A stretch of 64,000 nt of DNA, taken from NCBI GenBank assembly GCA_016933835.1, contig JAFGAC010000134.1:1-64000 (forward strand), read 5' to 3'. Numbering within the stretch: position 1 is the stretch's first letter; the number at the start of each line of letters is the position of its first letter. Under the pieces are notes generated by a model that was not told the DNA's origin, did not search any database, and saw only the letters and a program-made list of their open reading frames with translations. Below, piece after piece: positions 34,932 through 45,266 of the stretch. Position numbers and translations under genes: made by a program. This stretch comes from Clostridiales bacterium (GTDB taxonomy: Bacteria > Bacillota > Clostridia > Peptostreptococcales > Acidaminobacteraceae).

Positions 34932-36173
34932 ATGAATAAATACTATTTTCATGTGGATGTCAATTCAGCATATCTTTCTTGGGAAGCAGCTTATCAAATT
35001 CAGCAAGGAAGTGATATTGATCTAAGAATGATTCCTTCAGCTGTAGGTGGTGATCCTAAAACGAGAAGAGGCATCATTTTAGCAAAATCCATTCCTGCTA
35101 AAAAATATGACATTCACACCGGAGAAACGCTTTATAAAGCATTCCAGAAATGTCCGCATTTGACGGTAGTATCACCGCGATACCATTTATATATGAAAGC
35201 CAGCCAAGCTATGCATAACATTCTAGAATCATATTCTCCCAATATTCAACGTTTTTCTATTGATGAAAGTTTTTTGGATATCTACGCCTCAGAAACTTCA
35301 CTTGAAGATCTTGGCAATCAGATTAGAATTCACATAAAAGAAGACTTGGGCTTTACTGTAAATGTTGGGATTTCTTCCAATAAACTTTTAGCAAAAGTTG
35401 CTTCTGACTTTGAAAAACCAGACAATGTTCACACTCTTTTTCCACATGAAATTAAAAGTAAGATGTGGCCTCTTCCAGTTGAAGATTTATTTATGGTAGG
35501 CAGGGCAACTGCAAAGAAACTTCACGGAATGAACATCCACACAATTGGTGATTTAGCAAGTGCAGACTTAGATTATTTAAAATATAAACTGAAGAGCCAT
35601 GGTCAACTCATATGGGAATATGCGAATGGAATCGAATCTTCAAAAATTCGACTATCTGAAGAAAATTATGTTAAAGGAATTGGAAATTCTACAACACTGC
35701 CAAGAGATATCAATCAATCAGAAGACGCTCATATGTATCTCTTAGCTTTGACAGAAATGGTTGCCATGCGCCTCCGCCATGAAAATAAGCTTTGCAGTGT
35801 TGTTGTCATCAGCATTAAAAATTCTGATTTATCTCGCTATTCTCACCAAATGACATTGTTTTCTCCAACAGATGATACCAATGTCATTTACCAAACAACA
35901 AAGAAACTTTTCCATCAATCTTGGAAGAATCAATCAATTCGCCATTTAGGTGTAAGAGTCACCGGACTGTCAAATAATGATTATTATCAATATTCATTAT
36001 TTGACAAAAAAAATCTTGATACTCTGCGCAATTTAAATCAAACACTGGATGACTTGCGGCTTAAATATGGAAAATACACTATTTCAAGAGGTGTTTTTCT
36101 TCACAAAAAAATAAAACCAATCATCGGTGGCATCGGAGAAGATGACTACAAAATGATGAGCAGTTTACTCTAG
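34932..36173 (+). CDS. Y-family (UmuC/ImuB-like clade) DNA polymerase, SOS-controlled
   Basis: A 413-residue translesion polymerase. Catalytic residues are visible in FHVDVNSAYLSWEAA (first Asp) and RFSIDESFLDIY (Asp-Glu), and a helix-hairpin-helix follows (VEDLFMVGRATAKKLHGMNIHTIGDLA). The little-finger region is present. The ATG at 34932 follows AGGAGG; an ATG 12 codons upstream lies in the LexA-box promoter and is not used. The clade differs from the DinB-type enzyme 1.2 kb downstream. Its 3' end overlaps the convergent MFS gene by 9 bases. Confidence 0.9.
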   Translation: MNKYYFHVDVNSAYLSWEAAYQIQQGSDIDLRMIPSAVGGDPKTRRGIILAKSIPAKKYDIHTGETLYKAFQKCPHLTVVSPRYHLYMKASQAMHNILESYSPNIQRFSIDESFLDIYASETSLEDLGNQIRIHIKEDLGFTVNVGISSNKLLAKVASDFEKPDNVHTLFPHEIKSKMWPLPVEDLFMVGRATAKKLHGMNIHTIGDLASADLDYLKYKLKSHGQLIWEYANGIESSKIRLSEENYVKGIGNSTTLPRDINQSEDAHMYLLALTEMVAMRLRHENKLCSVVVISIKNSDLSRYSHQMTLFSPTDDTNVIYQTTKKLFHQSWKNQSIRHLGVRVTGLSNNDYYQYSLFDKKNLDTLRNLNQTLDDLRLKYGKYTISRGVFLHKKIKPIIGGIGEDDYKMMSSLL

Positions 36174-37352
36174 ATTTTTTATCACAATCACACTATTGAC
36201 TATCAAAGCGATTGTACTTACAACGGCTAAAAATAAAAATGCAGTTTTAAAATTATAGTGATCAGAAACCGAACCGAAAACTGGAAAAATAATAATCATG
36301 TAAAAACTGAAAACCATGCTGGCAACAGATAAAACTGTTGCCCTTATGTGACTCTCTATTTCTCTGTTGATGTAGTCATTCATTCCAACAAAAATAAGAC
36401 TGTCAACAAAGGTCACCGCTATGAATGCAATAATATGAAGCGATGACATCGCAATAATCCAGACAGACACAACTGTCACAAAAGGAAAAATGAGAAGAAA
36501 TCTTTTCTGTCCCAATTTTTTTTCTATACGACTGGCCAATATACCTCCCATCATCCCCATCAAGGAGCTCAAAGCAAAAAATAGTCCTATTTTCCATTCA
36601 ACAATATTTTGCCCTTTCCAGTAATTTTGCAAGTAATAAAATAAAACCGTTCCTATGGACAGGATAAATTCCATGGAGAATATGAAAAACATTATTTTCT
36701 TATTGCCACGAATCACTTGAAAACTCTCTTTGACTAAATTTCTAAAGGCATCTCTTGCTTTCATTTCTTTACTTTTATCAGATTTATAATTAGGTTCTAA
36801 AAATGTAAAGGCTTCAAAAAATGCAATTACAGTAAAAATAATTGTCACTGCATACAATAATGAATAATTATGACTTGCAAGCCATCCTCCAACAACAAAT
36901 GAAATCAAAGCTGTCAATTGGTAAATCCCCTCTATCCTTCCAATGATTTTTAAATATTTTTCCTCTTCTTTCAATTCTTTTAACGTATCATACAAAAGAG
37001 CTTCCCCAGCTCCTGATTCAAGATTGTATGAAATAGCAATAATCATGAATCCTAATGCAAACATGAAAATATTGTCTCCAATTAAAATTATGTAATTTGA
37101 AATGGCAAAAAATAATCGTCCTAATATACGACTTGTTTTCCTGCCAAACACATCAGCAATCATGCCTGTTGGAATTTCCATCGTGAAGGATGTCACATGA
37201 AACAAAGTTTCCAATAATCCTAAATAAACTAGATCAATTCCTTTATTGAATAAGTAAATCATCCAGAATCCATGGGTGAAATCAATTCTTAAAAACATGA
37301 AAAGATAATTTTTCCAAATGTTACTCTTTAATTTTATTATTCTATTTTCCAT
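36165..37352 (-). CDS. MFS-family transporter
   Basis: A 395-residue transporter with twelve predicted helices and the cytoplasmic loop GMIADVFGRKTSRILGR between helices 2 and 3 (motif A of the major facilitator family). The substrate is unknown; drug or metabolite export is likely. The ATG at 37350-37352 follows GGAG and overlaps the dinB stop by 11 bases, so the two genes are coupled. The 3' end overlaps the convergent Y-family polymerase gene by 9 bases. Confidence 0.87.
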   Translation of the reverse strand: MENRIIKLKSNIWKNYLFMFLRIDFTHGFWMIYLFNKGIDLVYLGLLETLFHVTSFTMEIPTGMIADVFGRKTSRILGRLFFAISNYIILIGDNIFMFALGFMIIAISYNLESGAGEALLYDTLKELKEEEKYLKIIGRIEGIYQLTALISFVVGGWLASHNYSLLYAVTIIFTVIAFFEAFTFLEPNYKSDKSKEMKARDAFRNLVKESFQVIRGNKKIMFFIFSMEFILSIGTVLFYYLQNYWKGQNIVEWKIGLFFALSSLMGMMGGILASRIEKKLGQKRFLLIFPFVTVVSVWIIAMSSLHIIAFIAVTFVDSLIFVGMNDYINREIESHIRATVLSVASMVFSFYMIIIFPVFGSVSDHYNFKTAFLFLAVVSTIALIVNSVIVIKNLE

Positions 37353-38421
37353 TGTCTTCTCCAATTAAGTCAAATAGCATCAACTGCTTTTCGTGATTAT
37401 TAATAAGTCCAGAAAGCGTTACTCCAAGAAGTCTCACTTTGCTTTTTAATACCATATGGTGCAACAGGTCATTCAACAGCAATCCAAAATATTTCTCATC
37501 ATCCGTATAAACTTCCAAACTTTTACTCCTGCTTACCTGTGTAAAATCATCAAATTTAATCTTGATCATCACTGTTTTTGCCAACATTTTTTTCTTGATC
37601 AACAACTCAACTACTTCATGCAAATAAATCTCTGCTCGTTTGATGATTTCTTCAAAATCATCAATATCTTCCGTAAATGTCATTTCTGTTCCAATGGATT
37701 TTCGCTCCGAATGCGTCTTGATTTCTCGATTATCAACGCCTCTGATTCTTTCATAAATTTCTTCTCCCATTGTCCCCATTAAATTGACCATTGTATCTAA
37801 ATCATAGAGAAGTAAATCTTCAATTGAATAGATTCCTATTTTATTGAGTTTTTCAACAGTTTTTTTTCCAATTCCATGTATTTTTATTATCGGCAACGGT
37901 TTCAATATCTCAGGAATATCCTCTTTTTTTATCACAAAAAATCCATCGGGTTTGTCCCACTCACTAGCAAGTTTCGCTAAAAATTTATTGTAAGAAATAC
38001 CAACTGAAACAGTCAATCCAGTTTCTTTTTTTATTTTGTTTTTAATATACTTTCCGATATATTCTGCCGTGTGATATAAATAAGTAACATCAAGATATGC
38101 TTCATCAATGGATACAATTTCAATATCATCTGTAATTTCATGTAAAAGCGCAAAAATTTTTTTTGACATTTCATCGTATCGGTCATGCCGTCCACTTATA
38201 TAGATACCTTCTGGACATAATTTCTTTGCTTGAAAAATTGGCATTGCAGAATGTACACCATATTTTCTAGCTTCGTAACTGCACGTCGAAACAACCCCTC
38301 GTGATGAAATTCCTCCCACAATGACGGGTTTCCCTTTTAACTTCGGATTATCAATTTGTTCGACAGATGCATAAAATGCATCAACATCTACATGAATTAT
38401 TTTTCTATTCAAAATATTCAA
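37342..38421 (-). CDS. dinB: DNA polymerase IV (DinB)
   Basis: A 359-residue Y-family polymerase. It has the catalytic segments HVDVDAFYASVEQID (residues about 10-24) and EIVSIDEAYLDVT (about 101-113), a helix-hairpin-helix (IIKIHGIGKKTVEKLNKIG) and a little-finger domain. It starts at TTG (38419-38421) inside the 3' end of the DUF2007 gene; no ATG lies near. No LexA box was found upstream, unlike the other Y-family gene. Confidence 0.92.
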   Translation of the reverse strand: MNILNRKIIHVDVDAFYASVEQIDNPKLKGKPVIVGGISSRGVVSTCSYEARKYGVHSAMPIFQAKKLCPEGIYISGRHDRYDEMSKKIFALLHEITDDIEIVSIDEAYLDVTYLYHTAEYIGKYIKNKIKKETGLTVSVGISYNKFLAKLASEWDKPDGFFVIKKEDIPEILKPLPIIKIHGIGKKTVEKLNKIGIYSIEDLLLYDLDTMVNLMGTMGEEIYERIRGVDNREIKTHSERKSIGTEMTFTEDIDDFEEIIKRAEIYLHEVVELLIKKKMLAKTVMIKIKFDDFTQVSRSKSLEVYTDDEKYFGLLLNDLLHHMVLKSKVRLLGVTLSGLINNHEKQLMLFDLIGEDNGK

Positions 38422-40528: not shown

Positions 40529-41008
40529 CTATTTGGCAAATATATCCAATTTTATAAATGCTTCTCTCATGTAATAAGTCAACGTGTTTTCATCAAAATT
40601 ACTGCCGTCATGAATTTTTCCTACCCGTTTTATCTTAGCTTTTTTCTCTCCCGGCACAATATAACTTAAAACGACAGATTCCACAAGATCCGCTTCAGGT
40701 ACGTAATAACCAACTTTAACTTCAATAGCGAGATTCTTTCTCGTAAATTTCAAATAATATTTCATTATGGATAATTTTCCAATCACTTCATCATCCGATT
40801 CGAAAAAAATTTTTCCATCAGATGCCTCTATCAATTCTTTCATCTCATCAATCAAATTTTTAAAATATTCTCTAATCATGATCTCTGCGCCATCAATCTG
40901 CTCTTTCAAATTCTTTTCATAACGAAGCTTTTCTATTTCTGGACTAAGTCGTTCATTTAATTTTTTTATCAGCTCATCTTTAAAATCATAAAAGAAATGC
41001 ACTGCCAT
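40529..41008 (-). CDS. uncharacterised 159-residue protein
   Basis: I do not recognise it. The first half is predicted to be helical and coiled-coil-like (about 5-65, charged, KKLNERLSPEIEKLRYEKNLKEQ); the second half alternates strands (EVIGKLSIMKYYLKFTRKNLAIEVKVGYY). No membrane helix. The ATG at 41006-41008 follows GGGAGTG; an upstream in-frame GTG is less likely. It lies between the SOS-controlled small gene and the UPF0173 gene on the same strand, so it may be in the SOS transcript. Confidence 0.6.
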   Translation of the reverse strand: MAVHFFYDFKDELIKKLNERLSPEIEKLRYEKNLKEQIDGAEIMIREYFKNLIDEMKELIEASDGKIFFESDDEVIGKLSIMKYYLKFTRKNLAIEVKVGYYVPEADLVESVVLSYIVPGEKKAKIKRVGKIHDGSNFDENTLTYYMREAFIKLDIFAK

Positions 41009-41057: not shown

Positions 41058-41318
41058 TTACATTTTAAACAAAATCCATCGATTCGTTTCAATTTCATAT
41101 TTCAGCTGATAAAGCTTGATCTCCCCCTCTATTTCACTTCTACAATCAAAAACATGCATAATATTTCCTGCGTATTTTTCAACAGTAGTTTTAATTACTT
41201 GATCAATTTTTATCACAACATTTATCCCAGAATCCTCAACTTTAAATTTAAGAGGCCGTATTTTTCCATCTTCATTGAAGCACGCAATCATATGAATAGG
41301 TTTTGCTATCACTTTCAT
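41058..41318 (-). CDS. small SOS-controlled protein of unknown function (86 residues)
   Basis: An 86-residue protein beginning MKVIAKPIHMIACFNEDG and ending with a YQLKYEIETNRWILFKM segment. I have the impression of a small family that accompanies Y-family polymerases in Firmicutes (DUF6504-like), but the match is not secure. It is probably a small beta-rich protein without a signal peptide. The ATG at 41316-41318 follows GGCGGGTG. Its promoter has a LexA box in the spacer, so it should be induced by DNA damage. Confidence 0.75.
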   Translation of the reverse strand: MKVIAKPIHMIACFNEDGKIRPLKFKVEDSGINVVIKIDQVIKTTVEKYAGNIMHVFDCRSEIEGEIKLYQLKYEIETNRWILFKM

Positions 41319-41339
41319 TTTACTCACCCGCCTAATATT

Positions 41340-41368
41340 AAAATACCACGAACTTATGTTCGTGTCAA
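41340..41368 (-). promoter_or_regulatory. SOS promoter with a LexA box in the spacer
   Basis: On the minus strand TTGACA (41363-41368) and TATTTT (41340-41345) are separated by exactly 17 bases, and the spacer carries CGAACATAAGTTCG (41349-41362), a near-consensus LexA box. LexA binding would block RNA polymerase. The promoter points at the 86-residue gene. Confidence 0.92.
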
Positions 41369-41448: not shown

Positions 41449-43965
41449 TTATATAATTATTTTCTCCAAGTCAGGCAAATAAGATTCCAAGTACTTCACA
41501 TTATGTTCTTTACAAGTAAACATTATGACTTGTCGTTCTTTAGAAATTTCCTCAATAAGTTTTAATGTAGGATCTAATCTTTCAACATCCCAATTAGAAA
41601 AAGCTTCATCGAGGATAATCGGCAACTTATCTTTATCCTGATCCAGATATTTAATGAGTGCAAGTCTAAAAGACAGATACAATTGATTTTTTGTCCCCGC
41701 ACTTATTTCACTGTCTGCAGAAACAATTTCTCCCTCTTGATCTTTCAAATACATTTTCTCATCTTCTTCTATCAAAACATGTGTGTATTTGCCATTGGTC
41801 ATTTTGCTGAAATAGTAACTTGTCAATTTCAAAACATCGGGCTGATTTTTTTCTCTATAGCGCTCATCCGCTCTGACAATCAACTGCTTCAATATAGATA
41901 AAATATCATATTGATGGGCATACTCTTTTAAAGCATGTGTTTTGTATTCAATTTTCCCCTCAATTACATCTAATGTATCTCCAGTTATTTTATGATCAAT
42001 TTCTGCTTTCAACTGTATGTTTCTCTTTGCTTTCTCTGTTTTTTCAAGCTGCAATGACTCAATATCATTTTCAATGACAATAAGATAATCTTCATTGATT
42101 ATAGACTGATCCAAATTATCAATTTCTTCTTCAATCTGACTCATATTGAAATTTTCAGCAAGCTCTGACTCATAATGAATGATACGATCTCTCACAGATA
42201 GATATTTTTCGATATTGCTGTATCCAATTTCAAAATTGCCGTTCCCCATTTTATTAATGGTATTTTCAATCATGGTATATTCATGATCTTTTTCAAGTGT
42301 TTTTTGTGCCAATTGATGAAGTCCATTATTTTCTTGTTCAATATCCCTCATCAGTTCATCATTCAATCTTGATTTTGCAACTGCTTCACTTAAAACATGA
42401 TTCAACATTTTCACATTTCTTATGTCATCAAACTTTGTAAAAATCTCATCATATTCACGCAAGCACTTAAGCTCAGCTTTTCCCAATTCTTGTTTTAAAT
42501 TGAGCAACTCTTCTGTTTTAATTCTAATTGTCTGATAGTTTTCCAAATTCTTTAAATTTATTTCAGTAAAGTTTTCTGCTATTTCCGGAACAATTCCAAT
42601 GGTTATAAGTTCTTTTTTCAACAATACACTGCTGCTGCTCTTTAATTTTTCTCTTCTATCAAAATAATCAAATATAACAATCAATAAAGTAATCGCTAAA
42701 ACTGCCGCTCCAAAAATATTTTGAGTAAATATGCCCACTCCCAAAAGTCCCAAAATAACTAATACCTTAAAAATCGCCAATGGTCCTTTTGAATTGTTAC
42801 TTTCATCTTCTTTTGATTTGTAGTATAGTGTTTGAATTTTTTGAAAATCAAAGTCAACAACATTTCGAATCTTTTCCTTAAAGAGATAATCCACTTCATT
42901 ATGCATTTTTTGAACATTCATTTCAAAGTACTCATTATTTTTATCAATGTTATCTTTTACTTTATCAAGTTTTAATTCAACTGATTCAATTTCTTCTAGT
43001 CTGTCTTTTAAACTCAAAGCCATTTTTTCATCATAGCTCAATTCTTCTATTTTTTCTTTCTTCAAAGCCACTTTGACATCTTTTTCTGATATTTCATCGC
43101 GATATTCTTTTAAAATCTCTTTCAAAGATTGATACTTCTCTAAAATTTCTTTATCAAGTCTCTCATATCTTTCATAATTTTCTACATTCGCTTTTAGATT
43201 TTCTATTTTATTTATCAAATCAATCGGTTTTAAATACCGATTAATTTGATTTTTTAAATTCACTTTTTCAATAATTTTTTCATCAAGTTTCAACAATTCT
43301 TTGTCCAACTTTTGAATATCTTCAGACATGACGCGCACTTCATGATATTGATTGCTCTTATCTTTTTTTTCTCGTTTTAGTTCCTTTATTTCATCTATCA
43401 ATTGATTGATCGTTTGTTTATTTCCTCGACTTCTAGCATTATAAAGGTTTTTTATATCCTCATCTAACTGCTGTATGACTGCTTTAGGAGATACATTACT
43501 ATTGCCGTAATTCAACACTAACTTATCCTGCAGTTCACTAAAGGACTTTGTTTCTATCTCTTTAAGCTGTTCACTTGTAATCATATAGACATTATTGAAA
43601 ATATTTCGAGACATGTATTCTGAATCAGGTAATGTACGATTATTGAGCTGAATAATTTCCAGACCATCTTCTATTGCCGCTTTTACATTATTGGATAATA
43701 ATCTTTTGACATTCAACTTTTTACCAGCACTATTCAGGTAGGACATGGCTATATTGAGACGCTCACCTTTCCAAGGCAGATATTTATGATTATCTTTTTT
43801 TGAACGCTCGAATCCAAAAATCAACTCGCTGATTGCCGAAACAATCGTTGATTTTCCAGCTTCATTTTTTCCATAAATCAAATTTGGTCGATTTTCAGAT
43901 AATTTAATTACTTTTTTATTATCGAATTTTCCATATTCAAATAGTGTAACTTCATTTATTTTCAT
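41449..43965 (-). CDS. YhaN-like ATPase (SbcC/Rad50-like) with internal membrane segments
   Basis: An 838-residue Rad50/SMC-type ATPase with Walker A GKNEAGKST (about residue 34), two long coiled-coil regions and C-terminal signature and Walker B in LDEAFSNWDVERL (about 800). A hydrophobic region of about 40 residues (about 392-435, two helices, GVGIFTQNIFGAAVL between them) interrupts the coiled coils, as in YhaN of Bacillus, and places the ATPase at the membrane. It pairs with the YhaO-like nuclease gene, overlapping by 4 bases (ATGA). Confidence 0.87.
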   Translation of the reverse strand: MKINEVTLFEYGKFDNKKVIKLSENRPNLIYGKNEAGKSTIVSAISELIFGFERSKKDNHKYLPWKGERLNIAMSYLNSAGKKLNVKRLLSNNVKAAIEDGLEIIQLNNRTLPDSEYMSRNIFNNVYMITSEQLKEIETKSFSELQDKLVLNYGNSNVSPKAVIQQLDEDIKNLYNARSRGNKQTINQLIDEIKELKREKKDKSNQYHEVRVMSEDIQKLDKELLKLDEKIIEKVNLKNQINRYLKPIDLINKIENLKANVENYERYERLDKEILEKYQSLKEILKEYRDEISEKDVKVALKKEKIEELSYDEKMALSLKDRLEEIESVELKLDKVKDNIDKNNEYFEMNVQKMHNEVDYLFKEKIRNVVDFDFQKIQTLYYKSKEDESNNSKGPLAIFKVLVILGLLGVGIFTQNIFGAAVLAITLLIVIFDYFDRREKLKSSSSVLLKKELITIGIVPEIAENFTEINLKNLENYQTIRIKTEELLNLKQELGKAELKCLREYDEIFTKFDDIRNVKMLNHVLSEAVAKSRLNDELMRDIEQENNGLHQLAQKTLEKDHEYTMIENTINKMGNGNFEIGYSNIEKYLSVRDRIIHYESELAENFNMSQIEEEIDNLDQSIINEDYLIVIENDIESLQLEKTEKAKRNIQLKAEIDHKITGDTLDVIEGKIEYKTHALKEYAHQYDILSILKQLIVRADERYREKNQPDVLKLTSYYFSKMTNGKYTHVLIEEDEKMYLKDQEGEIVSADSEISAGTKNQLYLSFRLALIKYLDQDKDKLPIILDEAFSNWDVERLDPTLKLIEEISKERQVIMFTCKEHNVKYLESYLPDLEKIII

Positions 43966-45182
43966 GATTCATCACCTGTAAAATATGCCATCATCAATTC
44001 CATCAATTCTTCTTTATGTTGATTTATAATACTTTCTGGATTTTCTTCATTATCAAATATTTGATATTTAATATGTTTCATATTTTTCATCATTTTTTTA
44101 TCTCCATTAGGATTATTCATAATCATCATCACTTCTTCTAAGACTTTATTGTCTTGAATCAAATCTTCCAATTTTTTAACATTTTTTAATTGGTATTTTT
44201 TAATTTCCAATGATTTTATATCCAAATCCTGAGCTAGTTCTTCTTCCAAATATTCAATTGACTCTACAGAATTCAGATACTTGACCATATTCGTCTGCCC
44301 AGTAATAAAGAGTCTGATAATTAAATTGCTTGAATTGTAGTTGAATGCAAGCAATTCTTCTGCTATAAGCCCTTTTAAAATATTGTAAAAGTCATACTCA
44401 GATCCGTATTCTCCCGTAATATCAATTGTCATGTGTTCAAAAAAAACAGTATTTAATGGTATAAACTCTATTTCAATAAGACCGTTGTCAACTTTTATAA
44501 AGTTTCCACCTTTTAACCCAGTTTCATTGATATTCAATCCTTGAATATTGCCTGAGTAAAAGATAGGATAGTCTTTAAATTGCATTCTTGAATGAATATG
44601 TCCCAGTGCCCAATAATCATATTTCTTATCAAGCAAATCTTCTAATGAAGTGGGCATATATTTTCCTTTTGTTTCATCAACTTCAACATTTTCAACCATC
44701 GTGTGAGCAATTCCAACAATAGGACGATCATCCATCTTTTTAGGAAACTTTCTAATTAAATTTCTTTTCTCATTATCGTTGATATGCCCTACACCAATAA
44801 TCCGACATACTTTGTCATGTTTATCTTTAATAATATATTCAGTCGGCACATCTCTATCAAATATATGTACATTATCACCAAATTTCGACTTCATATAAAT
44901 AACAGGATCATGATTACCAGGTGTATAAAAGACATGAATATTTTTTTCTCTCAATTTTTCAAAATTTTCCCATAGAAATTTTTCTGTATTTAGAGAAATT
45001 CTTTCATTGTCAAATAAATCTCCTGCTATTAAAAGTCCATCAATTTCTTCCTTAATGCAGAAATCGACAGCTTTTCGAAATGCATCCTTTTGACTGGCTT
45101 TTAAATCACTTCTGACGTTCGTATCTTTGCTCATTAAAGGAGCATCGAAATGAACATCAGCAATATGCAAGAATTTAAACAT
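43962..45182 (-). CDS. YhaO-like DNA repair exonuclease (SbcD/Mre11-type)
   Basis: A 406-residue calcineurin-like phosphoesterase with the metal-binding motifs HIADVHFDAPL, AGDLFDN, PGNHDP and GHIHSRMQ. It is the nuclease partner of the Rad50-like ATPase and should act on DNA ends. The ATG at 45180-45182 follows AAAGGGGG; an upstream ATG lies before that site. The stop overlaps the ATPase start by 4 bases. No LexA box was seen upstream. Confidence 0.88.
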   Translation of the reverse strand: MFKFLHIADVHFDAPLMSKDTNVRSDLKASQKDAFRKAVDFCIKEEIDGLLIAGDLFDNERISLNTEKFLWENFEKLREKNIHVFYTPGNHDPVIYMKSKFGDNVHIFDRDVPTEYIIKDKHDKVCRIIGVGHINDNEKRNLIRKFPKKMDDRPIVGIAHTMVENVEVDETKGKYMPTSLEDLLDKKYDYWALGHIHSRMQFKDYPIFYSGNIQGLNINETGLKGGNFIKVDNGLIEIEFIPLNTVFFEHMTIDITGEYGSEYDFYNILKGLIAEELLAFNYNSSNLIIRLFITGQTNMVKYLNSVESIEYLEEELAQDLDIKSLEIKKYQLKNVKKLEDLIQDNKVLEEVMMIMNNPNGDKKMMKNMKHIKYQIFDNEENPESIINQHKEELMELMMAYFTGDES

Positions 45183-45266
45183 GCTGATCCCCCTTTTCAT
45201 TCTATTTTAACACATCTCATATAAAAAAAGTTTAATACCCTATTATTTTAGTATATAATATTATTA

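What the first reader, a model, noticed from the sequence alone, without database searches (positions are those of the whole stretch)
41058..41368. Ideal SOS promoter driving a small unknown protein
TTGACA, a 17-base spacer containing CGAACATAAGTTCG, and TATTTT form a textbook LexA-blocked promoter. The product is an 86-residue protein that I cannot name. Two further genes (40529 and UPF0173) follow on the same strand with short gaps and may be co-induced.
Basis: partly seen in the sequence, partly recalled or inferred. Interest (0 to 1): 0.6.

Follow-up and report, generated by a model that had tools for sequence, protein, structure and literature searches.

The report
SOS-controlled ImuB-C-like polymerase partner gene
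A small gene that bacteria probably switch on after DNA damage appears to encode a helper of an error-prone DNA-copying enzyme encoded five kilobases away; helpers of this general kind were known, but this branch was not recognised by the protein-family libraries searched.

Summary
On the minus strand TTGACA-17-TATTTT carries CGAACATAAGTTCG inside the spacer; it is the only CGAACNNNNGTTCG in the 2.38 Mb genome. The genome has LexA, and GAACN4GTTC boxes precede lexA (two), recA and a Y-family polymerase at 34932-36173.

The 86-aa protein can be named. Relatives occur in 103 of 297 genomes of its order. Of 80 named loci, 36 lie directly behind a polymerase like the window's; of the other 44, 26 have their own strict LexA box against a 0.7% background. 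Small gene and polymerase co-occur. A family profile aligns with DUF6504, the published ImuB-C domain, at probability 95.5 against at most 19.2 in 200 column shuffles. The model is all-beta, pLDDT 94.

Best reading: a divergent standalone ImuB-C, an SOS-induced accessory subunit of the nearby polymerase. Standalone ImuB-C beside clostridial Y-polymerases is published (PMC6511836, passages), so this is a new member of a known kind, notable for being split from its polymerase, under LexA in both layouts, and present on phage contigs.

The parts
41363..41368 (-). -35 hexamer TTGACA
41349..41362 (-). LexA box CGAACATAAGTTCG, wholly inside the promoter spacer
   Evidence: conserved in relatives
41340..41345 (-). 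-10 hexamer TATTTT, preceded by TG
41058..41318 (-). gene of the 86-aa divergent standalone ImuB-C-type protein
40529..41008 (-). 159-aa protein of unknown family, probable second gene of the transcript
   Evidence: order kept in L048, L049
34889..34902 (+). LexA box GGAACATATGTTCT in front of the polymerase gene
34932..36173 (+). Y-family DNA polymerase, proposed partner
   Evidence: the start at 34932 is taken from relatives
36018..36089 (+). stretch of the polymerase resembling the RecA N-terminus (RecA-NT motif)
36126..36170 (+). conserved C-terminal tail GGIGEDDYKMMSSLL of the polymerase, proposed docking site

Best explanation
The gene at 41058-41318 encodes a divergent, standalone ImuB-C-type accessory subunit. 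LexA bound in the promoter spacer blocks RNA polymerase. After DNA damage, RecA-promoted LexA self-cleavage frees the promoter together with those of recA, lexA and the Y-family polymerase gene at 34932-36173. The small beta protein then joins that polymerase, probably at its conserved C-terminal tail next to the RecA-binding motif, forming a PolY-RecA-ImuB-C translesion complex. Shown here: promoter and box layout, LexA, RecA and the box set in the genome, genomic linkage and co-occurrence with the polymerase, remote homology with ImuB-C, an all-beta model. Inferred: LexA binding and induction, physical binding to the tail, effect on lesion bypass and mutagenesis.
For: LexA and RecA present and boxed. 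36 of 80 named loci directly behind a polymerase of the window's type, 26 of these 36 with a strict box at the polymerase; 26 of the other 44 with their own strict box, background 0.7%. Co-occurrence in 297 genomes: both 77, small only 26, polymerase only 18, neither 176. Profile match to DUF6504 at probability 95.5 against at most 19.2 in 200 column shuffles. DUF6504 is ImuB-C: D. deserti operon and the C-terminus of a Granulicella Y-family protein beside an error-prone polymerase. All-beta model, pLDDT 94.1. RecA-NT-like stretch and tail in 33 of 33 readable operonic polymerases and in the window's. No YolD in the genome. A plasmid of Vallitalea pronyensis has DNA polymerase IV followed by a relative annotated hypothetical.
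Against: Pfam's DUF6504 model does not detect it in the window genome and the family HMM alone does not match D. deserti ImuB-C or the Granulicella ImuB C-terminus. The WW-G motif of DUF6504 is absent. 26 genomes have the small gene without a close polymerase at the threshold and 18 the reverse, of which one (G208) has a small gene after all and lacks the tail. Six genomes of one family keep the tail without a small gene nearby. Only 3 of 36 phage-contig copies have a polymerase in the flank held. Box counts alone are at chance.
Confidence: 0.72

Rival explanations
1. The protein is ImuB-C-type but acts as a damaged-DNA-binding recruiter serving several repair systems, such as SbcCD and polymerases, and not as a fixed polymerase subunit (the earlier proposal of Aravind et al., PMC3765255).
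For: Published proposal. SbcD and SbcC genes lie just upstream on the same strand here and in L047-L051 and L065. Many copies are not next to a polymerase.
Against: The recurring neighbour is one polymerase type, with co-occurrence in the genome. SbcCD adjacency was seen in 6 of 80 loci, all near relatives or family members.
Confidence: 0.17
2. It is a YolD-type (UmuD-like) subunit of a UvrX/YqjW polymerase.
For: Same logic: small SOS-controlled protein coupled to a Y-polymerase with RecA-NT motif and conserved tail (PMC6511836). The window polymerase scores best with the NCBIfam model that also fits SPBc2 UvrX best.
Against: No YolD match in Pfam for any of 23 members, hhalign probability 0.1 with SPBc2 YolD as a single sequence, no YolD in the genome, different polymerase tail in UvrX.
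Confidence: 0.03
3. It is an SOS-induced protein of unrelated function that merely shares regulation and neighbourhood with the polymerase.
For: Function is inferred from context and remote homology; 44 of 80 loci are not directly behind a polymerase.
Against: Short gaps behind one polymerase type in 36 loci from several genera, genome-level co-occurrence, profile match to ImuB-C.
Confidence: 0.08

Closest known systems
Standalone ImuB-C (Pfam DUF6504, PF20114), e.g. Deinococcus deserti lexA-imuY-imuB-C-dnaE2
   Same: Length, beta character, KPI start, YEL and terminal W-L-K pattern in a profile alignment, SOS control, link to a Y-family protein
   Different: Not reached by Pfam's model, lacks the central WW-G motif, partner is a polymerase with SIDE catalytic residues (reading of residues recalled), gene split from the polymerase here
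PolY-RecA-ImuB-C putative complexes, including YqjH polymerases of Clostridia (PMC6511836, PMC12926913; passages seen)
   Same: Clostridial Y-polymerase with RecA-NT motif coupled to a small ImuB-C protein
   Different: Those texts describe operons; here the subunit has its own LexA promoter 5 kb away. Whether their lists include this divergent clade could not be checked (no supplements)
YqjW/UvrX with YqjX/YolD of Bacillus
   Same: Small SOS-controlled partner of a RecA-NT-bearing Y-polymerase; in S. aureus also encoded away from the polymerase with its own LexA site (PMC6511836)
   Different: No sequence relation found; different polymerase tail
ImuB C-terminal domain of ImuA-ImuB-DnaE2
   Same: Same domain superfamily by way of DUF6504
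   Different: Fused to an inactive Y-polymerase there; no DUF6504 match, so no usual ImuB, in this genome

Membership tests
LexA regulon (Gram-positive box) | GAACN4GTTC box overlapping the promoter, with LexA in the genome | tested here: met
LexA regulon (Gram-positive box) | LexA binding and induction by DNA damage | not testable with these tools
   Needs gel shift and RNA measurement
ImuB-C superfamily (DUF6504) | Profile similarity over the domain | tested here: met
   hhalign 95.5 against at most 19.2 in 200 shuffles
ImuB-C superfamily (DUF6504) | Match to the curated Pfam model PF20114 | tested here: not met
   No match in the window genome at E 0.001; none for 23 members at E 10. Hence 'divergent relative', not 'DUF6504 member'
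ImuB-C superfamily (DUF6504) | Conserved C-terminal Trp and beta structure (PMC3765255) | tested here: met
   W81 invariant in 23 and in 67 members; seven strands, no helix
PolY-RecA-ImuB-C complex | Genomic coupling with a Y-polymerase | tested here: met
   36 of 80 loci adjacent; co-occurrence
PolY-RecA-ImuB-C complex | RecA-NT motif in the polymerase C-terminus | tested here: inconclusive
   24-residue ungapped alignment with own RecA, 40 of 2000 shuffles as good; pattern in 33 of 33 readable polymerases, but written after inspection
PolY-RecA-ImuB-C complex | Physical complex | not testable with these tools
   No complex modelling or binding assay available
YolD (PF08863) | Sequence relation to YolD | tested here: not met

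The most novel reading that the evidence does not exclude
Clostridia use a detachable, mobile ImuB-C subunit: a separate, LexA-controlled small protein that recognises a fixed C-terminal tail of one Y-polymerase type and can be supplied in trans, also by phages that carry the subunit without the polymerase and so could retune the host's damage-induced mutagenesis.
Probability: 0.25. Interest if true: 0.6.

Novelty: new member of a known kind. Interest (0 to 1): 0.36.

Why it matters
It turns a widespread clostridial 'hypothetical protein' into a testable mutasome subunit. A system of one polymerase, one 86-aa protein and RecA is a small one in which to ask what ImuB-C does, a question the papers read here leave open. 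The split layout with matching LexA boxes and the conserved polymerase tail give direct tests.

Tried and rejected
Box enrichment by count alone: GAACN4GTTC has 18 sites against 19 control matches genome-wide, so counting proves nothing. Pfam, NCBIfam and PDB sequence searches gave no family for the 86-aa protein. Fold search against the PDB: no match at E 0.001, and VIA-align Z at most 6.2, not interpretable. In the viral structure library there was one strong match, a 100-aa uncharacterised protein of Siphoviridae sp. cthL03 with TM 0.81; I did not obtain its sequence. The YolD reading was rejected. The 159-aa neighbour was modelled from 5 sequences at pLDDT 65, too low to search with. A check that DUF6504 genes of the phylum sit next to polymerases of the window type was mostly negative: 3 of 25 loci with about 1.5 kb flanks. 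The small protein had no tblastn match in 50,697 phage records and the first IMG/VR scan, with the single sequence, found none; the scan with the alignment found 36. A DUF6504 query with another member gave no plasmid match. Papers: passages were seen of PMC6511836, PMC12926913, PMC3765255, PMC8072749, PMC4234289 and PMC3998124; all others only as search listings. The name DUF6504 is in none of the held papers.

Full report
Observation. The minus strand carries TTGACA, 17 bases, TATTTT, with the palindrome CGAACATAAGTTCG inside the spacer. An 86-aa ORF starts at the ATG at 41318. The exact CGAACN4GTTCG form occurs once in the 2.38 Mb assembly and its reversed control not at all. The looser GAACN4GTTC is no more frequent than its control (18 against 19), so position and conservation carry the argument, not counts.

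SOS context. The genome has one LexA over the family cut-off and one RecA. Strict boxes lie upstream of lexA (two), recA, the Y-family polymerase at 34932-36173 and this gene. Five of the 18 strict sites therefore precede four expected or proposed SOS genes. The box lies inside the promoter spacer, as in 14 of 31 relatives that have a relaxed box and no adjacent polymerase; in the other 17 no promoter-like pair overlapped the box at my thresholds.

The family. Relatives at E up to 0.001 are in 103 of 297 sampled genomes of the order. The named collection gave 186 relatives, of which the best 80 were kept: Clostridium, Desulfosporosinus, Fusibacter, Acidaminobacter and others. These 80 are not independent; several come from one genome. 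No Pfam, NCBIfam or PDB sequence family was found.

Two layouts. In 36 of 80 loci a polymerase of the window's type lies on the same strand within 300 nt upstream, and none of these 36 has a strict or relaxed box within 150 nt of the small gene. In 26 of the 36 a strict box lies around the polymerase start. Of the other 44, 26 have a strict box (31 relaxed) within 150 nt; random stretches of the same loci have 0.7% and 1.8%. Thirteen loci show neither; two of these, both Clostridium, have a near-box with one mismatch. In either layout the small gene tends to come under LexA.

Co-occurrence. Over the same 297 genomes, small gene and close polymerase (best E up to 1e-100) occur together in 77, small only 26, polymerase only 18, neither 176 (Fisher 5e-31, without correction for phylogeny). 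I read the DNA around the polymerase in all 18 polymerase-only genomes. One (G208) has a small gene that the first search missed, although its polymerase lacks the tail. Six of one family keep the tail with no small gene in the stretch, and G039 has a related tail. Most others lack or change the tail; one is cut by a contig end.

What the protein is. A profile of 97 members aligns with a profile of 25 DUF6504 proteins over nearly the whole length at probability 94.8; on match columns it is 95.5, against at most 19.2 in 200 column shuffles and 0.1 reversed. The 25 are those fetched of 43 genomes with a match among 149 of the phylum. That DUF6504 is ImuB-C was checked: D. deserti plasmid 1 carries LexA, a Y-family protein, a DUF6504 protein and DNA polymerase III alpha in that order, which PMC8072749 names lexA-imuY-imuB-C-dnaE2, and the C-terminus of a Granulicella Y-family protein next to an error-prone polymerase matches the DUF6504 profile at 25 bits. 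Against this, the family HMM alone does not match these two sequences, and the central WW-G motif is missing. I therefore call it a divergent ImuB-C relative. The model is confident (pLDDT 94.1) with seven strands and no helix, and has no clear PDB match; PMC12926913 likewise found no close PDB relative of ImuB-C.

The partner. The window polymerase ends with a 24-residue stretch that aligns ungapped with the genome's own RecA N-terminus (40 of 2000 shuffles as good), followed by GGIGEDDYKMMSSLL; 33 of 33 readable operonic polymerases share both features by patterns written after inspection. Timinskas and Venclovas describe the RecA-NT motif, suggest that conserved C-terminal tails bind the small subunit in YolD systems, and report ImuB-C coupled with YqjH polymerases mostly of Clostridia (PMC6511836). 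The 2026 paper again lists PolYs associated with ImuB-C (PMC12926913). The mechanism proposed here follows those papers; binding to the tail is inference.

Neighbours. The 159-aa protein at 40529-41008 directly follows the small gene in the window genome and in G179, G036, G068, G091, G155, G182 and G146, that is in 8 of the 16 genomes with a match among 41 of the family. In G085 only a fragment resembling the small gene precedes it; in the other 7 no small gene was seen next to it, and no relaxed box lies within 250 nt upstream of any copy examined. Co-induction here would be by read-through from the LexA promoter.

Verdict. The protein is a new, divergent member of a published kind of SOS polymerase subunit.

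Noticed in passing
L183-L218 (36 IMG/VR contigs): Relatives of the 86-aa protein on viral contigs: 3 of 36 have the polymerase in the flank held (at most 4 kb), 18 of 36 a relaxed LexA box within 200 nt. Phages may carry the subunit alone.
   Followed up: partly
L115, L117, L124, L125: One Desulfosporosinus genome (FKB) has four copies, none next to a polymerase and none with a recognised box.
   Followed up: no
L012 1559-1840: A 94-aa LysM-like ORF lies divergently across the two boxes of lexA, reminiscent of yneA of Bacillus (recalled).
   Followed up: no
window 37342-38421: A second Y-family polymerase, an ordinary DNA polymerase IV by NCBIfam, lies between the proposed partner and the small gene.
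   Followed up: partly
window 41449-45200: SbcC- and SbcD-like genes lie just upstream on the same strand, an order kept in 6 of 80 loci.
   Followed up: partly
L233 1338-1439: A fragment resembling the small gene lies before the 40529-type gene in a genome (G085) scored as lacking it: a possible remnant.
   Followed up: no
L239, L240, L241, L243, L244, L245: Six genomes of one family keep the polymerase tail GGVGEEDYPMMSSLL with no small gene found nearby; the tail may serve another partner there.
   Followed up: partly
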